From a virus: a stretch of 64,000 nucleotides of DNA. Made by a program: the position numbers and the translations under genes. The stretch spans positions 1 through 64,000 of IMG/VR virus record IMGVR_UViG_3300017613_000561. One strand, written 5' to 3'. Shown here in pieces: positions 1-14,920 of this stretch. The notes under the pieces were generated by a model, which was given only the letters and a program-made list of their open reading frames with translations, was not told the origin of the DNA and made no database searches. Each line of letters begins with the position of its first letter. Within the stretch, counting starts at the first letter, position 1.

Positions 1-18
1 CAGGGTGGTGATTACTAA
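1..18 (+). CDS. 3' end of an upstream gene (partial)
   Basis: The first five codons read Gln-Gly-Gly-Asp-Tyr and then TAA. This is the tail end of a gene that enters from the left. Its stop overlaps the next ATG by one base (TAATG), the same coupling seen at many junctions in this phage. Nothing can be said about its function. Confidence 0.5.
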   Translation, partial: QGGDY

Positions 19-1541
19 TGAGAGGGGGTGGGCCTAAGGGGTTGTCCCAGCCCAGAAGAAATTTAGGTTCTCCAACTACCATGGTGGAGAAGCCTGATGA
101 TGAGCACTCTTATGGTATGTGTCGGTTTGAGTACACTGCAGGTGATCAGTACTCCAAGAATGCTGGCTTTGACCCTTTTTATGAATATGTTTACCAGAGT
201 GCCCATAATGTTGGAGACGCAGGTTGGATAATAGATCTGGGGACAGAAGAACAGCTGGGTTGGGTATCTGTAGCCTCAGATCCTGTAGGGGACAATGGGG
301 TATATGAAGAGCTGTTTCTATGGTGGTCCCACGATAAGGTGCGGTGGTATAAGCAGCCTGGGAACCATAACCACCACAGGCATTACAGTACTGCTGGTGG
401 GCCGCATAACAACATTTACATGTACTGCCACATCCAGCAGCCAGTACAGAAGGCCAGATACTGGAAGATAACCTTCCCTGATTTCGACTCAGACTATGAT
501 GATGACTACATTCACACCACCAAGTTAACGGTGGGCCTAGTCCGTAACGATAATGTTTTGGTGGACGTGTTTCGGGAGCAGGCAGAACAGTTGTACCCTA
601 GCAGCTTTGACTATTATCACACCCCTCGTCAGATGCATGTAGGGCAGTGCTTTAACTGTGGTTGGCCCCCAGAGTTTATCTGGAACAACATGATGGCAGA
701 TGAAGGGTCCCATACGTCCAGGGAAGGGGCTAAGTACTGGACTGCTCTGGTGGATATGAAGGTACAGAGGGCTAGTAATGACTACTGGGATAAGCAAGAG
801 ATCACCCAGCTGCTAAAGAACGGGTTTACGATCCAGGAGGCGTTCACAGGCCCTGATACTGGGGACACCTATACTATCAATGGGAAGTACTATGGGGGTG
901 GCCCTACGTACCTGTATGATTATCGTATGTGGTGCTGGAGGACTGAGCGGAGCAATAATATTCATGTTGGGCAGCAGTACCTGTTAGAGTCTGTTAAGAC
1001 ATGGCACTCACTGGGGGACGTACCTGATTTCGCCATAGTAACCTCGTCAGGGGAGCAGGCGGGGTGGCAGATAGTACATAAGGATCTACCGGCTGCTATC
1101 TTACGGATGAGTTATAGCGCCAACTCTGAACAAAGTACCTTGGTCGCAGAGGATCTGGGGTTTGATGAGGAGTATGTATATCACTATCCCACGTTGCTAA
1201 ATAGGCATATGCTGTTGGCTAGGAACAGTACCGGAAGACAGCACTTTGGGAGCTATACCGGTAATGGGTCAGCCTCAGGACCGTCTATAACGGCTCCTGG
1301 GTTCCAGCCTGATGTCATAATGATATTCAAGCCTGAGGCCGCTAATGATAATGACATGTACATGTGGGACCGAGATTTTGAGGCTACTACTGGAGCCTGT
1401 TGGAAGGGGGCTAATCAGTACCATGTAGAGTCGCCCCCATCCTTAGCCTTTGCTGCCTCGGGGTTTACCATCTCCGATGCTGGGGATGAAATCAATGAAT
1501 CTGGGATCATATTTTATTACGCAGTATGGAAGATGGATTGA
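18..1541 (+). CDS. Tail fibre/adhesin-like protein with discoidin-like region
   Basis: A 507-residue protein, probably exposed on the tail. Residues about 40-180 resemble an F5/8 type C (discoidin) carbohydrate-binding fold, with the pattern GWIIDLG...VSV...LFLWWSHDKVRWY...ARYWKITF. Residues about 411-507 form a second beta-rich module starting GSYTGNG and containing FQPDVIMIFK, a style common in phage fibre proteins. It is aromatic-rich, with no signal peptide or membrane segment. The start is coupled to the upstream stop; an in-frame ATG at 81 is an alternative. It begins a run of structural genes and its partner at 1545 carries a similar fold. Discoidin assignment is by pattern only. Confidence 0.7.
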   Translation: MRGGGPKGLSQPRRNLGSPTTMVEKPDDEHSYGMCRFEYTAGDQYSKNAGFDPFYEYVYQSAHNVGDAGWIIDLGTEEQLGWVSVASDPVGDNGVYEELFLWWSHDKVRWYKQPGNHNHHRHYSTAGGPHNNIYMYCHIQQPVQKARYWKITFPDFDSDYDDDYIHTTKLTVGLVRNDNVLVDVFREQAEQLYPSSFDYYHTPRQMHVGQCFNCGWPPEFIWNNMMADEGSHTSREGAKYWTALVDMKVQRASNDYWDKQEITQLLKNGFTIQEAFTGPDTGDTYTINGKYYGGGPTYLYDYRMWCWRTERSNNIHVGQQYLLESVKTWHSLGDVPDFAIVTSSGEQAGWQIVHKDLPAAILRMSYSANSEQSTLVAEDLGFDEEYVYHYPTLLNRHMLLARNSTGRQHFGSYTGNGSASGPSITAPGFQPDVIMIFKPEAANDNDMYMWDRDFEATTGACWKGANQYHVESPPSLAFAASGFTISDAGDEINESGIIFYYAVWKMD

Positions 1542-4816: not shown

Positions 4817-5470
4817 ATGGCTACTGAAGCTAATTTTGTTAATACTACGACCAACTCTACTACCAGCATAGCGGCTACCACTGTAGTTGTGGTTGCAGCA
4901 TCATCTCCGTTTAATTCCCCCATAGATCCGAGTGGGGATACGGCTACGTTGATATTGCTGGATGATCCAGATACTCCGACTAAGTTAGAGATCATTACCT
5001 ATACCGGTAGGACAGGGGCAGGCCCGTACACGCTTACGGGAGTAACGAAAGGCGTGGATGGTACTTCGGATCAATCTTGGGCATCAGGTAGTCATGTTAT
5101 TCAAACTCCTACTGCTGCTTTAATTGCGTCATTGTATAAGAATGGGGGAGTACTTACTTCTTACGGGGAGACAGAAGTAGCTAAAGGTTCTGTATCAGGA
5201 GCACAGACGTTTAACACCGCTAATGGCAACATGTTTTCCCTTACCGCTACGGGAGCTATTACCCTTACCTTTACCAATGCCTTCGACACTACGGGGTTCA
5301 CTGTAATTGTTACGAACGCGGGAACGAATCTTACCTTCCCTGCATCCGTAGAGTGGGCGGGAGGTACAGCACCTACCCTGACGACTACGGGGGTGGATAT
5401 ACTTTCGTTTATAACCAATGATGGAGGCACTACTTGGTATGGATTCTTGGGGGGGGCTGACTTCTCATGA
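4817..5470 (+). CDS. Tail fibre-associated protein
   Basis: A 217-residue protein, very rich in Thr, Ser and Ala. The N-terminal half has the ITYTGRTGAGPYTLTGVTKG style seen in fibre attachment modules, and the C-terminal half carries repeated beta strands (GAITLTFTNAFDTTGFTVIV, then FPASVEWAGG) ending in TTWYGFLGG. It overlaps the start of the giant LamG gene by four bases (ATGATG region), so the two are probably made together. It may anchor that protein or form its stalk. Function is inferred. Confidence 0.6.
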   Translation: MATEANFVNTTTNSTTSIAATTVVVVAASSPFNSPIDPSGDTATLILLDDPDTPTKLEIITYTGRTGAGPYTLTGVTKGVDGTSDQSWASGSHVIQTPTAALIASLYKNGGVLTSYGETEVAKGSVSGAQTFNTANGNMFSLTATGAITLTFTNAFDTTGFTVIVTNAGTNLTFPASVEWAGGTAPTLTTTGVDILSFITNDGGTTWYGFLGGADFS

Positions 5471-8400
5471 TGTACCGTTTGGTTGTTATTGCAGCATCTA
5501 ATATTGGCGGGGGCGAGCCACCAGGACCATCATCTGAGTATTATTATGATTTGGTTATATCCGACCTTCCTGCTGGTTATTGGAGGTTGGGGGAGGGGGC
5601 CACACAAATACGTCCAGCTCTTATATGGTTAAGGGGTGATGCTACTACATACCATAATTATGATTTTACGTTCCTCACATCATATAATGATAGCGGGGAT
5701 GATTATGTAAAGAATAATAACGGATCGACTAATCTCATAACTCTCGATACAGCAGTAACTACTAGTGAATACACGTTTGAGTTCTGGATTCAATCTAAAA
5801 GTATATCCAGTAATGAGGTACTTCTCGGTATATTAAATACCGCTGAAACTGTAGTCGTAGCATTCCAGTTCTATAGTGGAAACCTCTATTTTTATAATGA
5901 AAGTGGATCTTATGTCAATGTAGATACGTTAGCTAATTTAGGTTTTGTAAATAACACATGGACTCATGTAGCTGCTGTAAGAACCTCCACAGACCTTGAT
6001 TTATATATTAATGGTACGCACGAACATAATACAACGGTATCCGGCACATACCAGATTGCGAAGCTTAGAACACAACACACCGCTGCTGCAACAGATTGCT
6101 GGTTCACCGATATTAAAATATCAGAAGAGGCTGTATATACGGATGATTTCACTCCTCCAACTAGAAACTCTACTACTAGATTTAGTACGGCAGAGGATAC
6201 CACCACTCACGCTATAGACCAGATAAACACTTTTGATGGTAACTATGTTAATACACCTACTCTTGGTGCTGCTGGGGTTTTAGTAGGGGATTCGGATACT
6301 GCAGTTACTTTTGATGACGCTTCTGATGAATATATAGGCATGGGGGATGTATTAGATTTTGATAATGATGACCCTCTTTCAATAGAGTGTTGGTTTAAGA
6401 CCTCTGTAAGTTCTACTCAGATGTCCCTAATAAGCAAGAATACCCATAATTCTCCATACAACGGGTACGATATATATCAGCACGGTACTAGCAATAAAAT
6501 ATACTTTACTTTGGCAGAAACCACCCCAGGAAACCATATAGGGGTATATACAGACAACACTTACAATGATGGCAATTGGCATCACTTAGTAGTTACGTAT
6601 GACGGTTCTACAAATGCGAGTGGCGTAACTATATATGTTGATGGAGCATCTGTATCTACAACTACCGACTCAGATGATCTGGGGGGTACTACCGTAAATA
6701 CCTACTCGTTTAATATCGCTAGTAGAAATGACGGGCAGTACACTTTCGATGGTTCTATGGATGAAGTAGCTGTTTATACCCATGTGCTTACTCCTGCTCA
6801 AGTAAAAGATCATTATATTGCAGGTAAATATGAAGTACAGGAGTACGCCTACTATGTATTATTATCAGACCCTGTTGCATATTGGAGGTTAGGAGAATCT
6901 GCTGGAACAAATGCTAAAGATCTTCTAGGTAATTACAATGGTACGTATACAAACACCCCCACACTAGGCGCTACAGGTGCCTTAATTGATGATTTGGATA
7001 CTGCAGTAACTTTTGATGACGCTTCTTCGGAATACGTCACCATGGGTGATGTTTTAGATTTTGATAAAGATGATCCTTTCTCTTTAGAGTGCTGGTTTAA
7101 AACCTCTACTAGCGGTAGTTACCAGATGCTGGTGACAAAACAAAATAATACAACAACATTAGGTTACGCTATATATCAACATAGTAGTAATGAATTAGAA
7201 TTTGTTTTAGGGAACGCCGTAGCGAATTATATTGTTGTAGATACTGATACTACTTATAACGATAATAATTGGCATCACTGTGTAGCTACTTATGATGGCT
7301 CTGAAGATGCTGGTGGGGTCACGATCTACGTTGATGGTGTTGCTGTAGCTACGACTACTGTTGCAAATAATTTAACGGGTACTACATTAAGCAGTCATCC
7401 ACTTTTAATTGGGGCTAGACAAAGTACATCCTATCCGTGGGATGGCTCCATAGATGAAGTCGCAGTTTATGATTATGCTTTACCTGCAACACAATCCTGG
7501 AAACATTTTTATTTCGGTAAACATGGATTTTTATTTAACCTATATGAAGATGTTATAAAAGCAGATACCCCATTAGCTTATTGGAGGTTGGGGGAGAGTA
7601 GTGGGACTGTTGCTGTAGATAGTATAGGTCCCTATCCTGGCACTTACACAGGCACTATCATAGTAAATAATGCAGGTGCTCTTGCTAATGACGTAGATAC
7701 TGCGGCAGATTTTGGTGCAGCAGCAGGCCACATAGATATGGGAGATGTTTTAGACTTTGCTTCTAGTGATCGTTTCAGTTTAGAGGCATGGTTTAAAACA
7801 AGTAGTAGTAGTAGCCAAGGTATTATAGGTAAATTTGATACTAAAGGTTATTTGATACAAATATCTTCTGGTACGATATATCAGTATATAAGAGTTACTA
7901 CCACTACTAATGAAATACGTAAAGTTTCTGTTAAAACCTTTAATGATGGCAATTGGCATCATTGTGTAGTTACGTATGACGGTAGTTCGGATGCTTCTGG
8001 TTTACTTCTATATGTAGATGGGCATGTTGCAGAATGCACTGCTACTTATGATACTTTGACAGGGGATATGAGTAACAGTACGGATCTTAATGTAGGTGCT
8101 TTTAATGCAGGATCTAAGTTCAGAGGCTTGTTGGATGAGGTTGCAATTTATGGTTATACCCTAGACGCATCACAGGTATATCACCATTATCTAGTGGGTA
8201 GTGAGGGGCGTGTACCTACAACCTACGATGCTGTTATTAAGTCAGATCTCCCGGTAGCGTATTGGAGGTTGGGGGAAACCACTGGAACTGTGGCATTTGA
8301 CCAGACGGGTACCTATAACGGTACATACACTAATACCCCGACACTGGCAGCAGGAGGAGCCCTTTTTGAAGATGCCAGCACTTCGGTAGTCTTTGACGAG

Positions 8401-11400
8401 GCTTCTGATGAATATATCACCATGGGTGATGTTCTTGATTTTGAAAGAACAGATTCTTTTTCTATAGCATGTTGGTTTAAAACATCAACTACTGGCACAA
8501 CTCAGATGTTGATTAGTAAAAATCTTAGTAGTGGCACGTACAGGGGTTATGCTATATATCAATCTAGTACTGATGATACTTTGTATTTTAAACTTAGGAG
8601 TGATAATACAGGTGCTAACCAACTAGATATAAAAACGGATAATACGTATAACGATGGCGAGTGGCATCATTGTGTGCTTACCTATGATGGTAGTTCGGAT
8701 GCTAAGGGCGCATATTTTTATATTGATGGTGTTCTTGTAGATACTACTATAGGAGATAACGGACTATCTACTACTACGATTAACAGTATAAATTTTCAAA
8801 TTGGGGCACGTAACGGCACTAACTTTCCTTGGGATGGCTCCATTGATGAAGTAGCTGTTTTTGATTATGCGCTTACCCACGAGAAGATTAAAAAGCACTA
8901 CAGCGTTGGTGTTACAGGTTACTTTGGGTATGCATATCAAACAATGTCATCAATACCTAGTGTGTATTGGAGGTTGGGGGATTACCCAGACGTTTCTACT
9001 ATCGCCCGAGATGAGATAAGAACTTTTGACGGGACCTACGGAGGGGTAAACACTTTGGGGGTGCCTGCATTAATATCGGGAGAAAGCGATAAGGCTGTAA
9101 CTTTTGGCGATGCTACAGGGGATTATATATCTGTAAGTACGGGAAATGAAATAGTTAAGACAGACCAACCATTTACTATAAGTTTTTGGTTTTCTTTAAA
9201 CACTTATACTGGCACTAAGTTTATAGCATTAGTACAAGTGGAATCAGATGCAACAGAACCTTATTTGATATTTCTCAGCAACGGGTATCCTGGGTATGCC
9301 GAGATATGTCTGGGGGCCACGGCGAATTGGGCTAAAGGGGATGCTGACCCAGATAGTTCTTTCGTAATTGATACCCTTTACCATATGGTTGTTACTTATA
9401 ACGGCCAAGGTAGTACTACTTTAGGTAATTATGCTCTATATGTAGACGGGGAAGAGATAACGATAACCACCACAAGTGCCTATGGGTCAGTAACTAACCA
9501 AACTATTCTTGCTGATGATGCAGCTAACGCTAACTATATAGATTGCGATGCAACAATAGATGAATTTGTTGTGCTTAGTAAGGAACTAACTGCTTACGAA
9601 GTTAGAAGTCAGTACCTGTTAGGTAAGTACGGTACCCTAAATTATGAACAGACTATTTTAGATTTAAGCCCAGAAGCATACTGGAGAATGGACGAAGCAT
9701 CAGGAGGTCTGTCTGATTCTGTAAACAGCTATGATCTTACCGCCAACGGTACTCCTGTTTATGAAGAAACTGGCTTGCTCTTTAATGACGTAAATAAAGC
9801 TATAACTTTTGATGGTAGCACAGAGTATTTTGAAGCTACAGCTACACCGCCTCTAGGCGCAGATGATGTAAGTGTTTATTCTATAACTTTTTGGATAGAA
9901 ATAGATGTACTCCCTGCAGCAGCAGCTATTATCTATGACCAACGCAGGGATAGCAACGGGGATTCCAATGTTGGTTTCCAGTTAAGAAGTACAGGTGTTT
10001 TTCGATCAGATAAATACCCGCCTTCAGGTTCAGAGTTAGATTCAAATCATGTAGCTACTACAGGAAGACTTTACTTTGTTGTTTATGTAGAAGATGGGTC
10101 AAGTAGAAAAATATATATCAACGGTCAATTAGATAATTCTGATTCTTCTGCAGAAACTTTTACAGGGTCTGATACAGACATGTTTGGTATAGGTGCCAAT
10201 GTTTCTTCCGGCCTGTATAAAGTAGAAGGCACTATAGATGAAATGGCTGTATTTACTTCGGCCCTCACCGCAACAGAAATTAAACATGCATACCTACTTG
10301 GTAAATACAGTAATGCTGGGTATGCGTATGAGATATTAAATATAGATCCTGTTGCATACTGGAGGTTAGGAGAATCTTCAGGGACGGCAGCTAGAGATGA
10401 GACACTCAAACATGACGGTACCTACACGAACACCCCTACTTTAGGGGCTTCAGGAACTTTGGTTGGGGACTTAGATACTGCCGTATCTTTTGATAATAGT
10501 TCTAACGAGTATGTAAGTATTGCAGACCATGTAGATTTAGATGGATTCTCTGCTTTCACTATAATGGCTGTGGTTAAACCGGACAGTGTGACAGGCTCAT
10601 TCGGTATTGTAGGTAAAGGTTCTACGTCAGCATGGGAACTACAATTATACAACTCAGATTTTTATTTCAATATTAACGAGGGTGGTGGTAATTCGATTGC
10701 TGCAGGACTTACGGTAGTTATAGGAACTACTTATTTTATTGTAGGTACTTATGACGGTTCTGATATGTACCTTTATGTTGATGCTATGGAAGAGAACACT
10801 AAATCTTTGACAGGTTCCGTTAATGCTAATGCACAGGCATTAGAGATCGGAAGAATAAGGCAAGACAACACCAAGGATTTTGATGGTGTGATTGATGAAG
10901 TTGCTTTGTTTGATTATGCTGTATCTGCTTCTGTGATTAGAGAGTTACATTGGCAAGGTAAATATAATAATTCTGGTTATGGATATACTATTTATCGAAA
11001 GCGTCCTGCAGTATATCTAAGGTTAGGGGAATCTGCAGGGACCGTTGCACATGATGTAATGGGGAACCAAAACGGTACCTACAACGGTACAGTTACTTTA
11101 GGGGCCACAGGTTTAGTATTTGGGGATTCAGATACAGCTTTAACTACTAACGGTACTGCTACTAATTATTTGTCTACTGGGTATCATGTAGATACTGATA
11201 ATGATTTTAGTATTGTTATGAGTGTAAATCTGGCTTCTGTTGCTGCCGCCACTTCATTCTTTTCTCAAGGGAGTACTAATGATTTCTTGATGTGGATGGA
11301 TGCTGCCGGTGCTACTAGATTCCTGGCTAATAATGCTACCAAGATTACCTGCGCTACTTTTTCTGCAAGCACCACGTATCATATTATGATGGTTAGATCT

Positions 11401-11607
11401 TCAGGCGTCATATCTATATATTATGATAATAAACTTCAGGGTAGTTGGGAGGGAGACCCAGGAGCAATAAATAATATACAATTCGGTAATCGTAGTTCTG
11501 TAGGGGATGGTGGCATTAACGGAACCATAGATGATATAGCAATATTCAATAGGGCTTTGACTAGCATAGAAAGATTAGAGCTGTATAAACTAGTATCAGG
11601 TTCTTAG
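5467..11607 (+). CDS. Giant LamG/concanavalin-like repeat tail protein
   Basis: A 2046-residue fibre-like protein built from LamG (concanavalin A-like, jelly-roll) domains, each about 220-240 residues. Eight units open with the motif YWRLGE or a close variant, near residues 38, 471, 704, 931, 1167, 1405, 1632 and 1849. A typical unit continues with NGTYTNTPTLG, DTAVTFDDAS, a W-F-K-T strand, a DGNWHHCV strand and ends GSIDEVAVYDYAL. Such domains bind sugars, often with calcium, so a receptor-binding role is likely. The first unit is split by an extra LamG-like segment at residues about 47-241. The gene is more AT-rich than its neighbours. No signal peptide is evident. Confidence 0.85.
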   Translation: MMYRLVVIAASNIGGGEPPGPSSEYYYDLVISDLPAGYWRLGEGATQIRPALIWLRGDATTYHNYDFTFLTSYNDSGDDYVKNNNGSTNLITLDTAVTTSEYTFEFWIQSKSISSNEVLLGILNTAETVVVAFQFYSGNLYFYNESGSYVNVDTLANLGFVNNTWTHVAAVRTSTDLDLYINGTHEHNTTVSGTYQIAKLRTQHTAAATDCWFTDIKISEEAVYTDDFTPPTRNSTTRFSTAEDTTTHAIDQINTFDGNYVNTPTLGAAGVLVGDSDTAVTFDDASDEYIGMGDVLDFDNDDPLSIECWFKTSVSSTQMSLISKNTHNSPYNGYDIYQHGTSNKIYFTLAETTPGNHIGVYTDNTYNDGNWHHLVVTYDGSTNASGVTIYVDGASVSTTTDSDDLGGTTVNTYSFNIASRNDGQYTFDGSMDEVAVYTHVLTPAQVKDHYIAGKYEVQEYAYYVLLSDPVAYWRLGESAGTNAKDLLGNYNGTYTNTPTLGATGALIDDLDTAVTFDDASSEYVTMGDVLDFDKDDPFSLECWFKTSTSGSYQMLVTKQNNTTTLGYAIYQHSSNELEFVLGNAVANYIVVDTDTTYNDNNWHHCVATYDGSEDAGGVTIYVDGVAVATTTVANNLTGTTLSSHPLLIGARQSTSYPWDGSIDEVAVYDYALPATQSWKHFYFGKHGFLFNLYEDVIKADTPLAYWRLGESSGTVAVDSIGPYPGTYTGTIIVNNAGALANDVDTAADFGAAAGHIDMGDVLDFASSDRFSLEAWFKTSSSSSQGIIGKFDTKGYLIQISSGTIYQYIRVTTTTNEIRKVSVKTFNDGNWHHCVVTYDGSSDASGLLLYVDGHVAECTATYDTLTGDMSNSTDLNVGAFNAGSKFRGLLDEVAIYGYTLDASQVYHHYLVGSEGRVPTTYDAVIKSDLPVAYWRLGETTGTVAFDQTGTYNGTYTNTPTLAAGGALFEDASTSVVFDEASDEYITMGDVLDFERTDSFSIACWFKTSTTGTTQMLISKNLSSGTYRGYAIYQSSTDDTLYFKLRSDNTGANQLDIKTDNTYNDGEWHHCVLTYDGSSDAKGAYFYIDGVLVDTTIGDNGLSTTTINSINFQIGARNGTNFPWDGSIDEVAVFDYALTHEKIKKHYSVGVTGYFGYAYQTMSSIPSVYWRLGDYPDVSTIARDEIRTFDGTYGGVNTLGVPALISGESDKAVTFGDATGDYISVSTGNEIVKTDQPFTISFWFSLNTYTGTKFIALVQVESDATEPYLIFLSNGYPGYAEICLGATANWAKGDADPDSSFVIDTLYHMVVTYNGQGSTTLGNYALYVDGEEITITTTSAYGSVTNQTILADDAANANYIDCDATIDEFVVLSKELTAYEVRSQYLLGKYGTLNYEQTILDLSPEAYWRMDEASGGLSDSVNSYDLTANGTPVYEETGLLFNDVNKAITFDGSTEYFEATATPPLGADDVSVYSITFWIEIDVLPAAAAIIYDQRRDSNGDSNVGFQLRSTGVFRSDKYPPSGSELDSNHVATTGRLYFVVYVEDGSSRKIYINGQLDNSDSSAETFTGSDTDMFGIGANVSSGLYKVEGTIDEMAVFTSALTATEIKHAYLLGKYSNAGYAYEILNIDPVAYWRLGESSGTAARDETLKHDGTYTNTPTLGASGTLVGDLDTAVSFDNSSNEYVSIADHVDLDGFSAFTIMAVVKPDSVTGSFGIVGKGSTSAWELQLYNSDFYFNINEGGGNSIAAGLTVVIGTTYFIVGTYDGSDMYLYVDAMEENTKSLTGSVNANAQALEIGRIRQDNTKDFDGVIDEVALFDYAVSASVIRELHWQGKYNNSGYGYTIYRKRPAVYLRLGESAGTVAHDVMGNQNGTYNGTVTLGATGLVFGDSDTALTTNGTATNYLSTGYHVDTDNDFSIVMSVNLASVAAATSFFSQGSTNDFLMWMDAAGATRFLANNATKITCATFSASTTYHIMMVRSSGVISIYYDNKLQGSWEGDPGAINNIQFGNRSSVGDGGINGTIDDIAIFNRALTSIERLELYKLVSGS

Positions 11608-11626: not shown

Positions 11627-14600
11627 ATGTCTTTCCGTTCTTTTGGGTTATCACCGTATGGACTGCCCAAAGGAGTGCAGGGAACTGCTACCGACCACTC
11701 AGGGCAGAAAGCCCCCCGTCCGTATGGTCTATCCCCTTACGGGTTAGCCAAAAACCCCATATCTATCGTTACTGGTAACATTGCCACAGGCGTTGCTGGG
11801 CACTTCTCGTTTACAGGTAAGGCTTCTGAGGTATCCACCCCAACCACTGCCCAAGGCGTAGCAGGTCATCTTGCCTTAACAGGCAACGCTTCAGAAGCAG
11901 GTATACCTAATATAGCAGCAGGGGTGGCAGGGCATCTTACGCTTACAGGTAAAGTAGCTACTGCCAAAATAGACAACATTGCATTAGGTGTTGCAGGACA
12001 TCTTGACTTTACCGGCAATGCTTCAAAAACCACAGGGTCAAATACTGTTGAAGGTGTCGCAGGGCATTTAACTCTCACAGGAAAAGCAGCACAAGTCAAT
12101 ACACCTACCACCAGTTTAGGTGTAGCTGGGCATCTGTCTTTAACGGGGAAAGATGCTACCGCTAAGACTATTCCTTACCACTGGGCGCAGGGGGTTGCTG
12201 GGCATTTATCCTTAACTGGGAAAACTGCTACTGCCAAGATAGACAATATTGCTCAAGGTGTATCTGGGCATTTGAGTCTCACCGGTAATGCTTCGATAAC
12301 CACCCAGAAAGATACTGCTCTGGGTGTAGCAGGCCACCTGCCGTTCCTTAAGAAGTTCGGTAAGGTAGATAACGGGATCACGGTAACTACGGAGATTAAA
12401 GAAGGTCCGATAGATTATACCGATGATGTACTGGTAGACATCACCCCTGTAGTTTCTGAGTATGTAACCACCGGGATACCTATAGGTTATAACGTAACCG
12501 GCATATATGGTGCGGGTAGCTCCGGGATCAACGGTACGACATTAAACACTGGTCCTATAAACCAGCCTGGAGTTAATTACCCAGGACCGGACATTCAGGC
12601 CAATCTGAACTTTAGCTGGTCTCAGGGAGCAGTTCTGGTTGGGGGTATGACCTTTAAGTACGTCCTGATGGACGATGCTGAATATGGTCATGGAGAGCTG
12701 AACCATAAGTATGGGCAGGGCACACCAGAACCGGTGGTGTATAGTTCTGATCTGAATATGGTGTGGGAGCTTGATGCATATGTAGCCACTGCTCAGATTA
12801 ATGAGTTAAATTTCAGATTAGCCCATACTGGTGTTGACTATTACGCAGATTGTTTAAGTGAGATAAATGCTTTAAGGGTAGCAGAGGATCTGCCCCCGTT
12901 ATTACGCTACTCAAATGTTTCAGGTATCCCAGGATCAGATATTGCTTGGGATATGTCACATCAAATGGCTAAGCACAGTATTTTTGCCACAGAGAGCCCA
13001 TCCTTTGATGAAGGCTTTAGGACCCTGGAGGATTACAGTAACATGGTACCAGAAGGGGTGTGGAAGATAGGTGCTCTGGCAGCAGTTTGGGCTATGGATT
13101 CCATACCAACCCCAGCAGATTTAGTTGCATGGTTTGCAGCACAGCCTACATCATTGGAATATATGCTGGATGACTACAAGGAAGATAACAGCCCAGACCC
13201 CAGCAATAAATACGAACATTTTTGGATAGGCATTGAGTATAATTGGGAAAACGCTAGTCTGGATGGACCTACAGGCAATCCGGCTGGTACCAAGTATGCC
13301 TACATCACCTTTATATTTGGCGGAGTACTACAGGCGGGAGCAGACGGTATGCAAGAGATATCCTTAAACAACAAATACCAGATGGCGGCATACTCTGTAA
13401 GCACTCTGAGTAATAAGTATGAGCAGGATGCTTATACGGAGGTTCTGGTACAACATGATTCACCGTATGGGCTCAGGGTGGCAAATCAACATGAGGCTCC
13501 TTTTGGCTCTAGGGCTACCCAGCAGCATGTTGCTCCTATCACTTACAGGGTAGCAAGGCAGTTGGATGCCCCTTACGGGGAAATGGTACGTGTGATTACC
13601 CAGCATGACTCTAAATATGCTATCCAGCAGTACAACTTTGTAACCACAGACCATGCGGCCCTTTGGAGTATAGGTAATGTAGTGGTTCAGCACAACGCCC
13701 CTTATGTGGGACTAGGCCGAGTGCAAGTGCAGCACTTAAGTGCATACACTGCCACAGATACGGTAGTGAAGCAGCATGATGCTCCATATAGGATAGATGA
13801 CTTTAATAGGGTGCTTTCGGACCTGACCAGTATTTGGAGCATGATGTCGGATACTGATTATGCTGCAGCTCCGATCAGAAAGCTTATCCATAATGGGGTG
13901 GAGATAGAAATAGACTCCCTCACACTGTCCAGTTCTGAGAGCGGTGTAGCGTGGGAGTTTGAAGCTGCCCTTGTGGATGTAAAGGACTACAAGACTATTA
14001 CCAGAAGGGACACCATCATAGTGCAGCTGGCTGCAGACCAGTACACCATGGTTGTGGAGAGTAAGGAGTTGAATAGATCAGATCCAGCAGAAGTAACCAT
14101 GAGGCTGCGTGGAGCCAGTCCTATTGTTCTGAAGGCCCCACCGCATGCACAGACGATAACCAAATCGTACACCTCCATTATGTCTGCCAAGGCCATTGTG
14201 GAGGATCTCCTTGGTGAATCAGTAACGTGGGGCATTGTAGACTGGTTTATTCCTGCATATCGCATGGCGGTGTCCAACGGGTCGGCAATTACGGCTGCCC
14301 AGCGGGTTGTAGAGGCCGTAGGTGGTGTTATTGAGTCGAACTTGAACGGAACGATCAATATACGGCCGAAGTACCCTGTGACGGTTCCAGACTTCAGTAC
14401 TGCTACCCCTGACATGGTTTTGACGGACATAGATGACAATTTGTCAGTATCTGAAGGATTCCATATGGTAGAGAGTTATAATGTCTACCGGGTGAAGGAT
14501 GGGGACTCTGTATACCAGGATAAGCTGGAGCATGTTCCTGATCCAGATAACAAGTTTGCTCCCTGTACTATCAGGTGTTACCCGACCCCATGGAGGACGA

Positions 14601-14920
14601 ATGTAACCCTGAAGCATACCTGGGATTCTCGTATATCTCTGGCCTACGTTGGTGAAGTTACTCGGGTAGTGGAAGAAGAGCTGGTAGAATTCGTAGCAGG
14701 TGTTGGTAATTTGAAGTACCCTGCTACAAGTATCACGCTGGTAGATTGGGAGTCTTTGGCATTGACCGGGCTGACTTTCGACCCGTACACCAGCAAGGTG
14801 ACCACAAGTAACCCAGAGGATTATGGTTTGGCTAAGATAACGTACCAGACGAAATCTATAGATTACACAGCCACTCAGCCTGCAGACACTGATGCTCAGT
14901 TTGTGTTGGAGGATGCATAA
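11627..14920 (+). CDS. Chimeric tail protein: repeats, CAP-like domain, hub-like C-terminus
   Basis: A 1097-residue mosaic. Residues 1-45 contain a duplicated GLSPYGL motif. Residues about 50-245 hold nine copies of a roughly 22-residue unit centred on GVAGHLSLTGK. Residues about 390-555 resemble a CAP/SCP (PR-1) domain (INALRVAEDLPPLLRYS, MSHQMAKHSIF). Residues about 605-725 repeat QHDAPY or close variants about eight times. Residues about 830-1097 resemble tail-hub or baseplate proteins (TAAQRVVEAVGGVIESNL, INIRPKYPV). It ends by a one-base overlap with the next gene. The design suggests a central tail-tip protein with an exposed N-terminal arm. The CAP call is tentative. Confidence 0.7.
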   Translation: MSFRSFGLSPYGLPKGVQGTATDHSGQKAPRPYGLSPYGLAKNPISIVTGNIATGVAGHFSFTGKASEVSTPTTAQGVAGHLALTGNASEAGIPNIAAGVAGHLTLTGKVATAKIDNIALGVAGHLDFTGNASKTTGSNTVEGVAGHLTLTGKAAQVNTPTTSLGVAGHLSLTGKDATAKTIPYHWAQGVAGHLSLTGKTATAKIDNIAQGVSGHLSLTGNASITTQKDTALGVAGHLPFLKKFGKVDNGITVTTEIKEGPIDYTDDVLVDITPVVSEYVTTGIPIGYNVTGIYGAGSSGINGTTLNTGPINQPGVNYPGPDIQANLNFSWSQGAVLVGGMTFKYVLMDDAEYGHGELNHKYGQGTPEPVVYSSDLNMVWELDAYVATAQINELNFRLAHTGVDYYADCLSEINALRVAEDLPPLLRYSNVSGIPGSDIAWDMSHQMAKHSIFATESPSFDEGFRTLEDYSNMVPEGVWKIGALAAVWAMDSIPTPADLVAWFAAQPTSLEYMLDDYKEDNSPDPSNKYEHFWIGIEYNWENASLDGPTGNPAGTKYAYITFIFGGVLQAGADGMQEISLNNKYQMAAYSVSTLSNKYEQDAYTEVLVQHDSPYGLRVANQHEAPFGSRATQQHVAPITYRVARQLDAPYGEMVRVITQHDSKYAIQQYNFVTTDHAALWSIGNVVVQHNAPYVGLGRVQVQHLSAYTATDTVVKQHDAPYRIDDFNRVLSDLTSIWSMMSDTDYAAAPIRKLIHNGVEIEIDSLTLSSSESGVAWEFEAALVDVKDYKTITRRDTIIVQLAADQYTMVVESKELNRSDPAEVTMRLRGASPIVLKAPPHAQTITKSYTSIMSAKAIVEDLLGESVTWGIVDWFIPAYRMAVSNGSAITAAQRVVEAVGGVIESNLNGTINIRPKYPVTVPDFSTATPDMVLTDIDDNLSVSEGFHMVESYNVYRVKDGDSVYQDKLEHVPDPDNKFAPCTIRCYPTPWRTNVTLKHTWDSRISLAYVGEVTRVVEEELVEFVAGVGNLKYPATSITLVDWESLALTGLTFDPYTSKVTTSNPEDYGLAKITYQTKSIDYTATQPADTDAQFVLEDA
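13732..13743 (+). promoter_or_regulatory. GCACTTAAGTGC palindrome inside the hub-like gene
   Basis: Perfect copy encoding His-Leu-Ser-Ala inside one of the QH(D/N)APY repeats. It is far from a gene start and is the only perfect copy in the late structural block; chance is possible. Confidence 0.4.

What the first reader, a model, noticed from the sequence alone, without database searches (positions are those of the whole stretch)
5467..11607. LamG repeat giant with a LamG-like domain nested inside the first repeat
Seven units run from YWRLGE directly to the NGTYTNTPTLG element. In the first unit these are separated by about 195 residues (residues about 47-241, bases about 5605-6189) that themselves look like a different LamG domain (EYTFEFWIQSKS, TWTHVAAVRTSTDLDLYING). 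The flanking pieces (YWRLGEG... and NTFDGNYVNTPTLG) would join into a normal repeat if the insert were removed. That means that one jelly-roll was inserted into a loop of another.
Basis: seen in the sequence. Interest (0 to 1): 0.7.

Follow-up and report, generated by a model that had tools for sequence, protein, structure and literature searches.

The report
Lectin-like domain nested inside another
A marine-type phage tail protein made of eight sugar-binding-type (LamG) repeats carries a second, different LamG domain plugged into a loop of its first repeat; similar plug-ins occur in other phages, so this is a real and recurring, but not revolutionary, way of building adhesins.

Summary
ORF 5467-11607 (2046 aa) has eight LamG units. 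Unit 1 is 434 aa long, the others 215-238. After its YWRLGE strand (residues 38-43) it carries a divergent phage-type LamG ending in FTPPT (about residues 44-241, Pfam Laminin_G_3 2.3e-12). In a profile of ordinary units the N-terminal piece matches positions 4-19 and the post-insert piece positions 19-225, so the halves abut with nothing lost. The junction holds no substitute for strand 1.

The same architecture occurs in two other phage contigs (L076, L073). L106 has an F5/8-type-C domain in that loop. L003 (phage), cyanophage S-SKS1 and two bacterial MAGs have LamGs inserted in other LamG loops.

A structure prediction whose alignment did not link ordinary units' strand 1 to the outer domain still gave the helix and strand pLDDT about 92 and left the junction disordered.

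Outer-domain trees put the nested units nearer to uninterrupted units, suggesting repeated insertion.

Nested is much likelier than serial. Probably a distal-tail adhesin (inferred). New variant of a known kind; I found no paper describing LamG-in-LamG nesting.

The parts
5467..11607 (+). 2046-aa LamG repeat protein, eight units, one interrupted
5536..5595 (+). linker helix plus first strand of the outer LamG of unit 1 (EYYYDLVISDLPAGYWRLGE, strand YWRLGE at 5578-5595)
   Evidence: matches ordinary-unit profile positions 4-19; PSSM 40.1; predicted helix and strand, block pLDDT about 92
5596..6189 (+). inserted FTPPT-type LamG domain (about residues 44-241)
   Evidence: Laminin_G_3 2.3e-12; profile of FTPPT-type phage LamGs 6.2e-24, positions 63-207; its N-terminal third is divergent and predicted with low confidence
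6178..6198 (+). junction RFSTAED; similar in L076 (PFSTAED); predicted disordered
6193..6825 (+). remainder of the outer LamG of unit 1 (residues 243-453)
   Evidence: ordinary-unit profile positions 19-225, 221 bits; 53% identical to unit 2
6826..11604 (+). units 2-8, uninterrupted LamG units of 215-238 aa (6826-7524, 7525-8205, 8206-8910, 8911-9624, 9625-10302, 10303-10959, 10960-11604)
4817..5470 (+). upstream tail-fibre-like gene; its relative in L036 is followed by three serial FTPPT-type LamG domains
11627..14920 (+). downstream tail gene; C-terminal 350 aa related to a tail-module protein of 80-kb Vibrio siphophages (SIO-2, J26)

Best explanation
Unit 1 is a LamG jelly-roll with a second, complete LamG of another subfamily inserted in the loop that follows its first strand. 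The outer domain folds from two separated pieces (residues about 24-43 and 243-453), and the inserted one sits as a side module on flexible joints. LamG termini lie close together, so the insert can plug into a loop without disturbing the fold or spacing of the eight-unit array (inferred from the fold). The gene lies in a phage tail module and most likely encodes a distal-tail adhesin; the inserted domain adds a binding surface near the N-terminus (inferred). This loop has received foreign domains repeatedly: LamG in the window, L076 and L073, and F5/8 type C in L106. Other LamG loops do the same in L003, S-SKS1, L148 and L181. Shown: the discontinuous sequence architecture and its recurrence. 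Inferred: the strand pairing, surface position and sugar binding.
For: Unit lengths and alignment. Two separate LamG matches. Exact abutment in the profile of ordinary units. Strand 1 kept in all three nested units and no substitute at the junction. L076 and L073 inserts are complete FTPPT-type domains (profile positions 4-209 and 2-205) starting just after strand 1. Same architecture at 22-29% identity with the window. In L073 the first unit is uninterrupted and a later unit is nested. F5/8 type C insert in L106. Mid-domain insertions in L003 and L148, L181 and S-SKS1. AF2 with an alignment in which no ordinary unit links strand 1 to the outer domain: strand-1 block pLDDT 92, junction below 50 without a strand. 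Both jelly-rolls match LamG/LNS folds. Outer-domain tree.
Against: No coordinates or PAE were available, so pairing of strand 1 with the outer domain is not seen directly. In the first AF2 run, without any strand-1 rows, residues 20-95 were below pLDDT 50. The N-terminal third of the window's insert is short and divergent and is predicted with low confidence. One automatic MAFFT alignment put the ordinary YWRLGE over RFSTAE, the serial register. Three same-site cases is a small sample.
Confidence: 0.86

Rival explanations
1. Serial domains: an FTPPT-type LamG precedes an outer LamG that rebuilt its first strand from the junction (RFSTAED), leaving YWRLGE as a relic.
For: MAFFT with all full units chose this register. 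Serial FTPPT-type LamGs are common, for example L036 with the homologous upstream gene.
Against: Junction scores are -28, -32 and -25 against 40, 27 and 40 for the kept strands. The junction is disordered and without a strand in the model. A relic would not be expected to survive in three proteins at 22-29% identity.
Confidence: 0.08
2. Strand YWRLGE is the first strand of the inserted domain, and the outer domain has none.
For: The ordinary-unit profile can run from YWRLGE through the insert as one weak hit (33-37 bits). The insert's own N-terminal region is poorly predicted.
Against: Inserts in L076 and L073 have their own first strand after YYGLDD / YWRLGD (profile positions 2-4 onward). 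The window insert has PALIWLRGD in that place. YWRLGE with its linker helix is the signature of the outer type. Confidence of the outer C-terminal helix rose once the N-terminus was placed.
Confidence: 0.05
3. Assembly chimera or recombination scar with no biological role.
For: Metagenomic contig; no close relative found.
Against: Intact 2046-aa frame; insert GC 0.375 against 0.396 for the gene; same architecture and similar junction in L076 and L073.
Confidence: 0.01

Closest known systems
Laminin_G_3 / LamG-like jellyroll (Pfam PF13385) in phage tail and virion proteins
   Same: Every unit and the insert match; tail-module context; phage proteins with several LamGs are common. Laminin G3 domains associated with tail fibres are reported in jumbo phages (PMC7824862).
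   Different: Here one LamG is discontinuous and hosts another.
Synechococcus phage S-SKS1 AGH31518.1 (960 aa)
   Same: A LamG split by other LamGs, by profile coordinates.
   Different: Different loops: one LamG in one loop and two in another.
L076 and L073 phage LamG proteins (IMG/VR 3300028388)
   Same: Same site, same insert type; L076 also shares the FSTAED junction.
   Different: Only 22-29% identical; in L073 the nested unit is not the first one.
Domain insertion (A1-B-A2) in general
   Same: PMC13114784 finds insertions in 20% of multidomain proteins, with about 34% of events not crossing homologous groups, and says inserts need close termini.
   Different: A term search of that paper found no mention of concanavalin, jelly-roll or viral cases.

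Membership tests
Laminin_G_3 (PF13385) | Profile match above the gathering score in the repeat protein and in the insert | tested here: met
   595 bits for the protein with 9 stretches; insert 47.8 bits, outer 91.3 bits, cut-off 27.6
Laminin_G_3 (PF13385) | LamG/pentraxin-like jelly-roll fold | tested here: met
   Foldseek to laminin LG4-5, neurexin LNS and PTX3, probability 1.00
Laminin_G_3 (PF13385) | Carbohydrate or ligand binding | not testable with these tools
   no binding data
A1-B-A2 domain insertion | Host sequence interrupted; both parts complementary in the host profile | tested here: met
   positions 4-19 and 19-225
A1-B-A2 domain insertion | Inserted part is an independent, complete domain | tested here: inconclusive
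   complete in relatives L076 and L073 (positions 4-209 and 2-205); in the window only positions 63-207 match and the N-terminal third is divergent and of low predicted confidence
A1-B-A2 domain insertion | Both host parts fold together | tested here: inconclusive
   strand 1 at pLDDT about 92 and junction disordered, but no coordinates to show the contact
Phage tail adhesin | Encoded in the tail module | tested here: met
   tail-fibre PHROG matches in neighbouring genes; downstream genes follow the order of the tail module of Vibrio phages J26 and SIO-2
Phage tail adhesin | Present in virions and binds the host | not testable with these tools
   needs proteomics or adsorption assays

The most novel reading that the evidence does not exclude
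The LamG fold works as a recursive plug-in scaffold in phage and bacterial adhesins: specific loops, above all the one after strand 1, are hot spots that repeatedly accept whole domains (LamG, F5/8 type C, even tandem LamGs), so specificity can be added sideways without lengthening or re-registering the array.
Probability: 0.4. Interest if true: 0.6.

Novelty: new variant of a known kind. Interest (0 to 1): 0.45.

Why it matters
Nested homologous domains are easily annotated as simple tandem repeats, which gives wrong domain boundaries and wrong expression constructs. If LamG loops are hot spots, phages have a second way (sideways insertion) besides tandem duplication to diversify host recognition, and this can be tested by comparing nested and uninterrupted relatives.

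Tried and rejected
Direct search for the insert alone in viral contigs found no relative. The first AF2 run, without strand-1 rows, was uninformative about the N-terminus. Alignments that put insert-type rows on the outer domain, or full units in the serial register, were not used for prediction. Pinpointing the recombination by GC: the leader looked GC-richer, but about 5% of equal windows in the gene are as rich. Boundary direct repeats: only a 7-base match, taken as chance. DSL-LC04 and pPa_SNUABM_DT01 proved to be serial LamG proteins. Foldseek matches to clostridial neurotoxin binding domains reflect the shared lectin jelly-roll fold only.

Full report
OBSERVATION. The ORF at 5467-11607 is intact and encodes 2046 aa. 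It holds eight LamG units with strand 1 (YWRLGE or a variant) at residues 38, 472, 705, 932, 1167, 1405, 1631 and 1850. Units 2-8 are 215-238 aa long; unit 1 is 434 aa. The extra block alone matches Laminin_G_3 at 2.3e-12 and the remainder of unit 1 at 9.1e-26. The window is part of a 92,447-base virus record.

NESTED OR SERIAL. A profile built from ordinary units only aligns the N-terminal piece of unit 1 to positions 4-19 and the piece after the insert to positions 19-225 (221 bits), so the halves meet with no loss or overlap. A position matrix of linker helix plus strand 1 scores 40.1 for the window's strand, 26.9 for L076 and 40.5 for L073; ordinary units have median 46.4 and tenth percentile 32.8. 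The best windows at the junctions score -28.4, -32.5 and -25.5. The junction (RFSTAED here, PFSTAED in L076, GAAEAAD in L073) therefore offers no rebuilt first strand. The serial register is nevertheless what one automatic alignment chose, so sequence alignment alone is not enough.

STRUCTURE. In the first AF2 run the other units were given without their strand 1, and the N-terminal 76 modelled residues stayed below pLDDT 50; uninformative. The second alignment held the three nested proteins, the other units cut behind strand 1, and unlinked strand-1 fragments of 20-21 residues, so no ordinary unit told the network that strand 1 belongs to the outer domain; only the nested proteins span both. 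The model (mean pLDDT 74.5, pTM 0.64) has a helix and strand at residues 24-39, with a mean of 92 for residues 30-39, a junction below 50 without a strand, and two jelly-rolls. Confidence of the outer domain's last strand and C-terminal helix rose compared with the first run. The tool gives no coordinates, so the strand pairing is inferred. The best PDB matches include laminin LG4-5, neurexin LNS and PTX3. The insert's N-terminal third is low-confidence.

RELATIVES. L076 has the same arrangement in its first unit (MSEYQSIIKARNPLAYYGLDD, insert, EPFSTAEDLSGNG) followed by two ordinary units. L073, from the same metagenome and with similar neighbouring genes, has an uninterrupted first unit and a nested later unit; its gene is split over two frames in the contig. 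Their inserts match a profile of up to 50 FTPPT-type phage LamGs from end to end (positions 4-209 and 2-205); the window's insert matches positions 63-207. L106 carries an F5/8 type C domain (PF00754, 6.1e-14) in the same loop. L003 has a whole LamG unit in a late loop (profile positions 7-178, full domain, 197-223). L148 and L181, two bacterial MAG contigs, have one and two LamGs in a middle loop. Cyanophage S-SKS1 AGH31518.1 has a LamG split at two places by one and two others. These mid-loop cases rest on profile coordinates and reading of the sequence. The survey covered 451 ORFs with 1237 LamG stretches, but loci overlap and were collected with these queries, so no rate can be given.

HISTORY. 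In a tree of outer domains (without the inserts) the window's unit 1 groups with its own units 2 and 4 and the uninterrupted L067 (98/89). L073's nested unit groups with L073's own uninterrupted unit (89/97, below the tool's threshold for a firm branch); L076 is unplaced. Firm branches force at least two changes of the nested state. The inserts of L076 and L073 are each other's best match (31%), while the window's insert is closer to FTPPT-type domains elsewhere. The simplest reading is at least two independent insertions at one site; gene conversion among units could imitate this. The bootstrap had not converged. GC and boundary repeats gave no further clue.

CONTEXT AND FUNCTION. Upstream genes match tail-fibre PHROGs. 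The downstream protein's C-terminus is related to a protein of SIO-2-like Vibrio siphophages, where it lies between the tape measure protein and the replication genes. In L036 the homologue of the upstream gene is followed directly by a protein of three serial FTPPT-type LamGs. A distal-tail adhesin is the most likely role; binding is inferred from the domain family.

KNOWN OR NEW. LamG arrays in phages are well known and LamG domains in jumbo-phage tail fibres are reported (PMC7824862). Domain insertion is common, and insertions within one homologous group are about a third of events (PMC13114784). I found no paper on LamG-in-LamG nesting, though the library lacks most subscription journals. 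Verdict: real, nested, recurrent, a new variant of a known kind.

Noticed in passing
L271 3780-6662 (S-SKS1 AGH31518.1): One LamG appears split at two loops by one and two further LamGs, three guests in one host.
   Followed up: partly
L003, ORF from 3487: A LamG unit with its linker helix sits in a late loop of another LamG in a phage protein.
   Followed up: partly
L106, ORF frame 0, residues 279-440: An F5/8 type C domain is inserted in the same post-strand-1 loop of a LamG unit.
   Followed up: partly
L148 and L181 (bacterial MAG contigs): One and two LamG units respectively inserted in the same middle loop of a LamG.
   Followed up: partly
L006, L011, L017, L019, L028: Short phage LamG proteins carry a strand-1-like segment (for example SPVSWWRNGDGD in L017) after the domain, as if circularly permuted.
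   Followed up: no
L073 5284-8700: The LamG gene is split over two reading frames in the contig; frameshift or assembly error.
   Followed up: no
L124, ORF frame 2, residues 677-730: A LamG start (YWRLGE...HHGSYG) runs straight into what looks like a beta-propeller region, with no rest of the LamG found.
   Followed up: no
window 18-1541: The C-terminal part matches DUF7483 (PF24299, 5.8e-15), and tail-fibre PHROGs.
   Followed up: no
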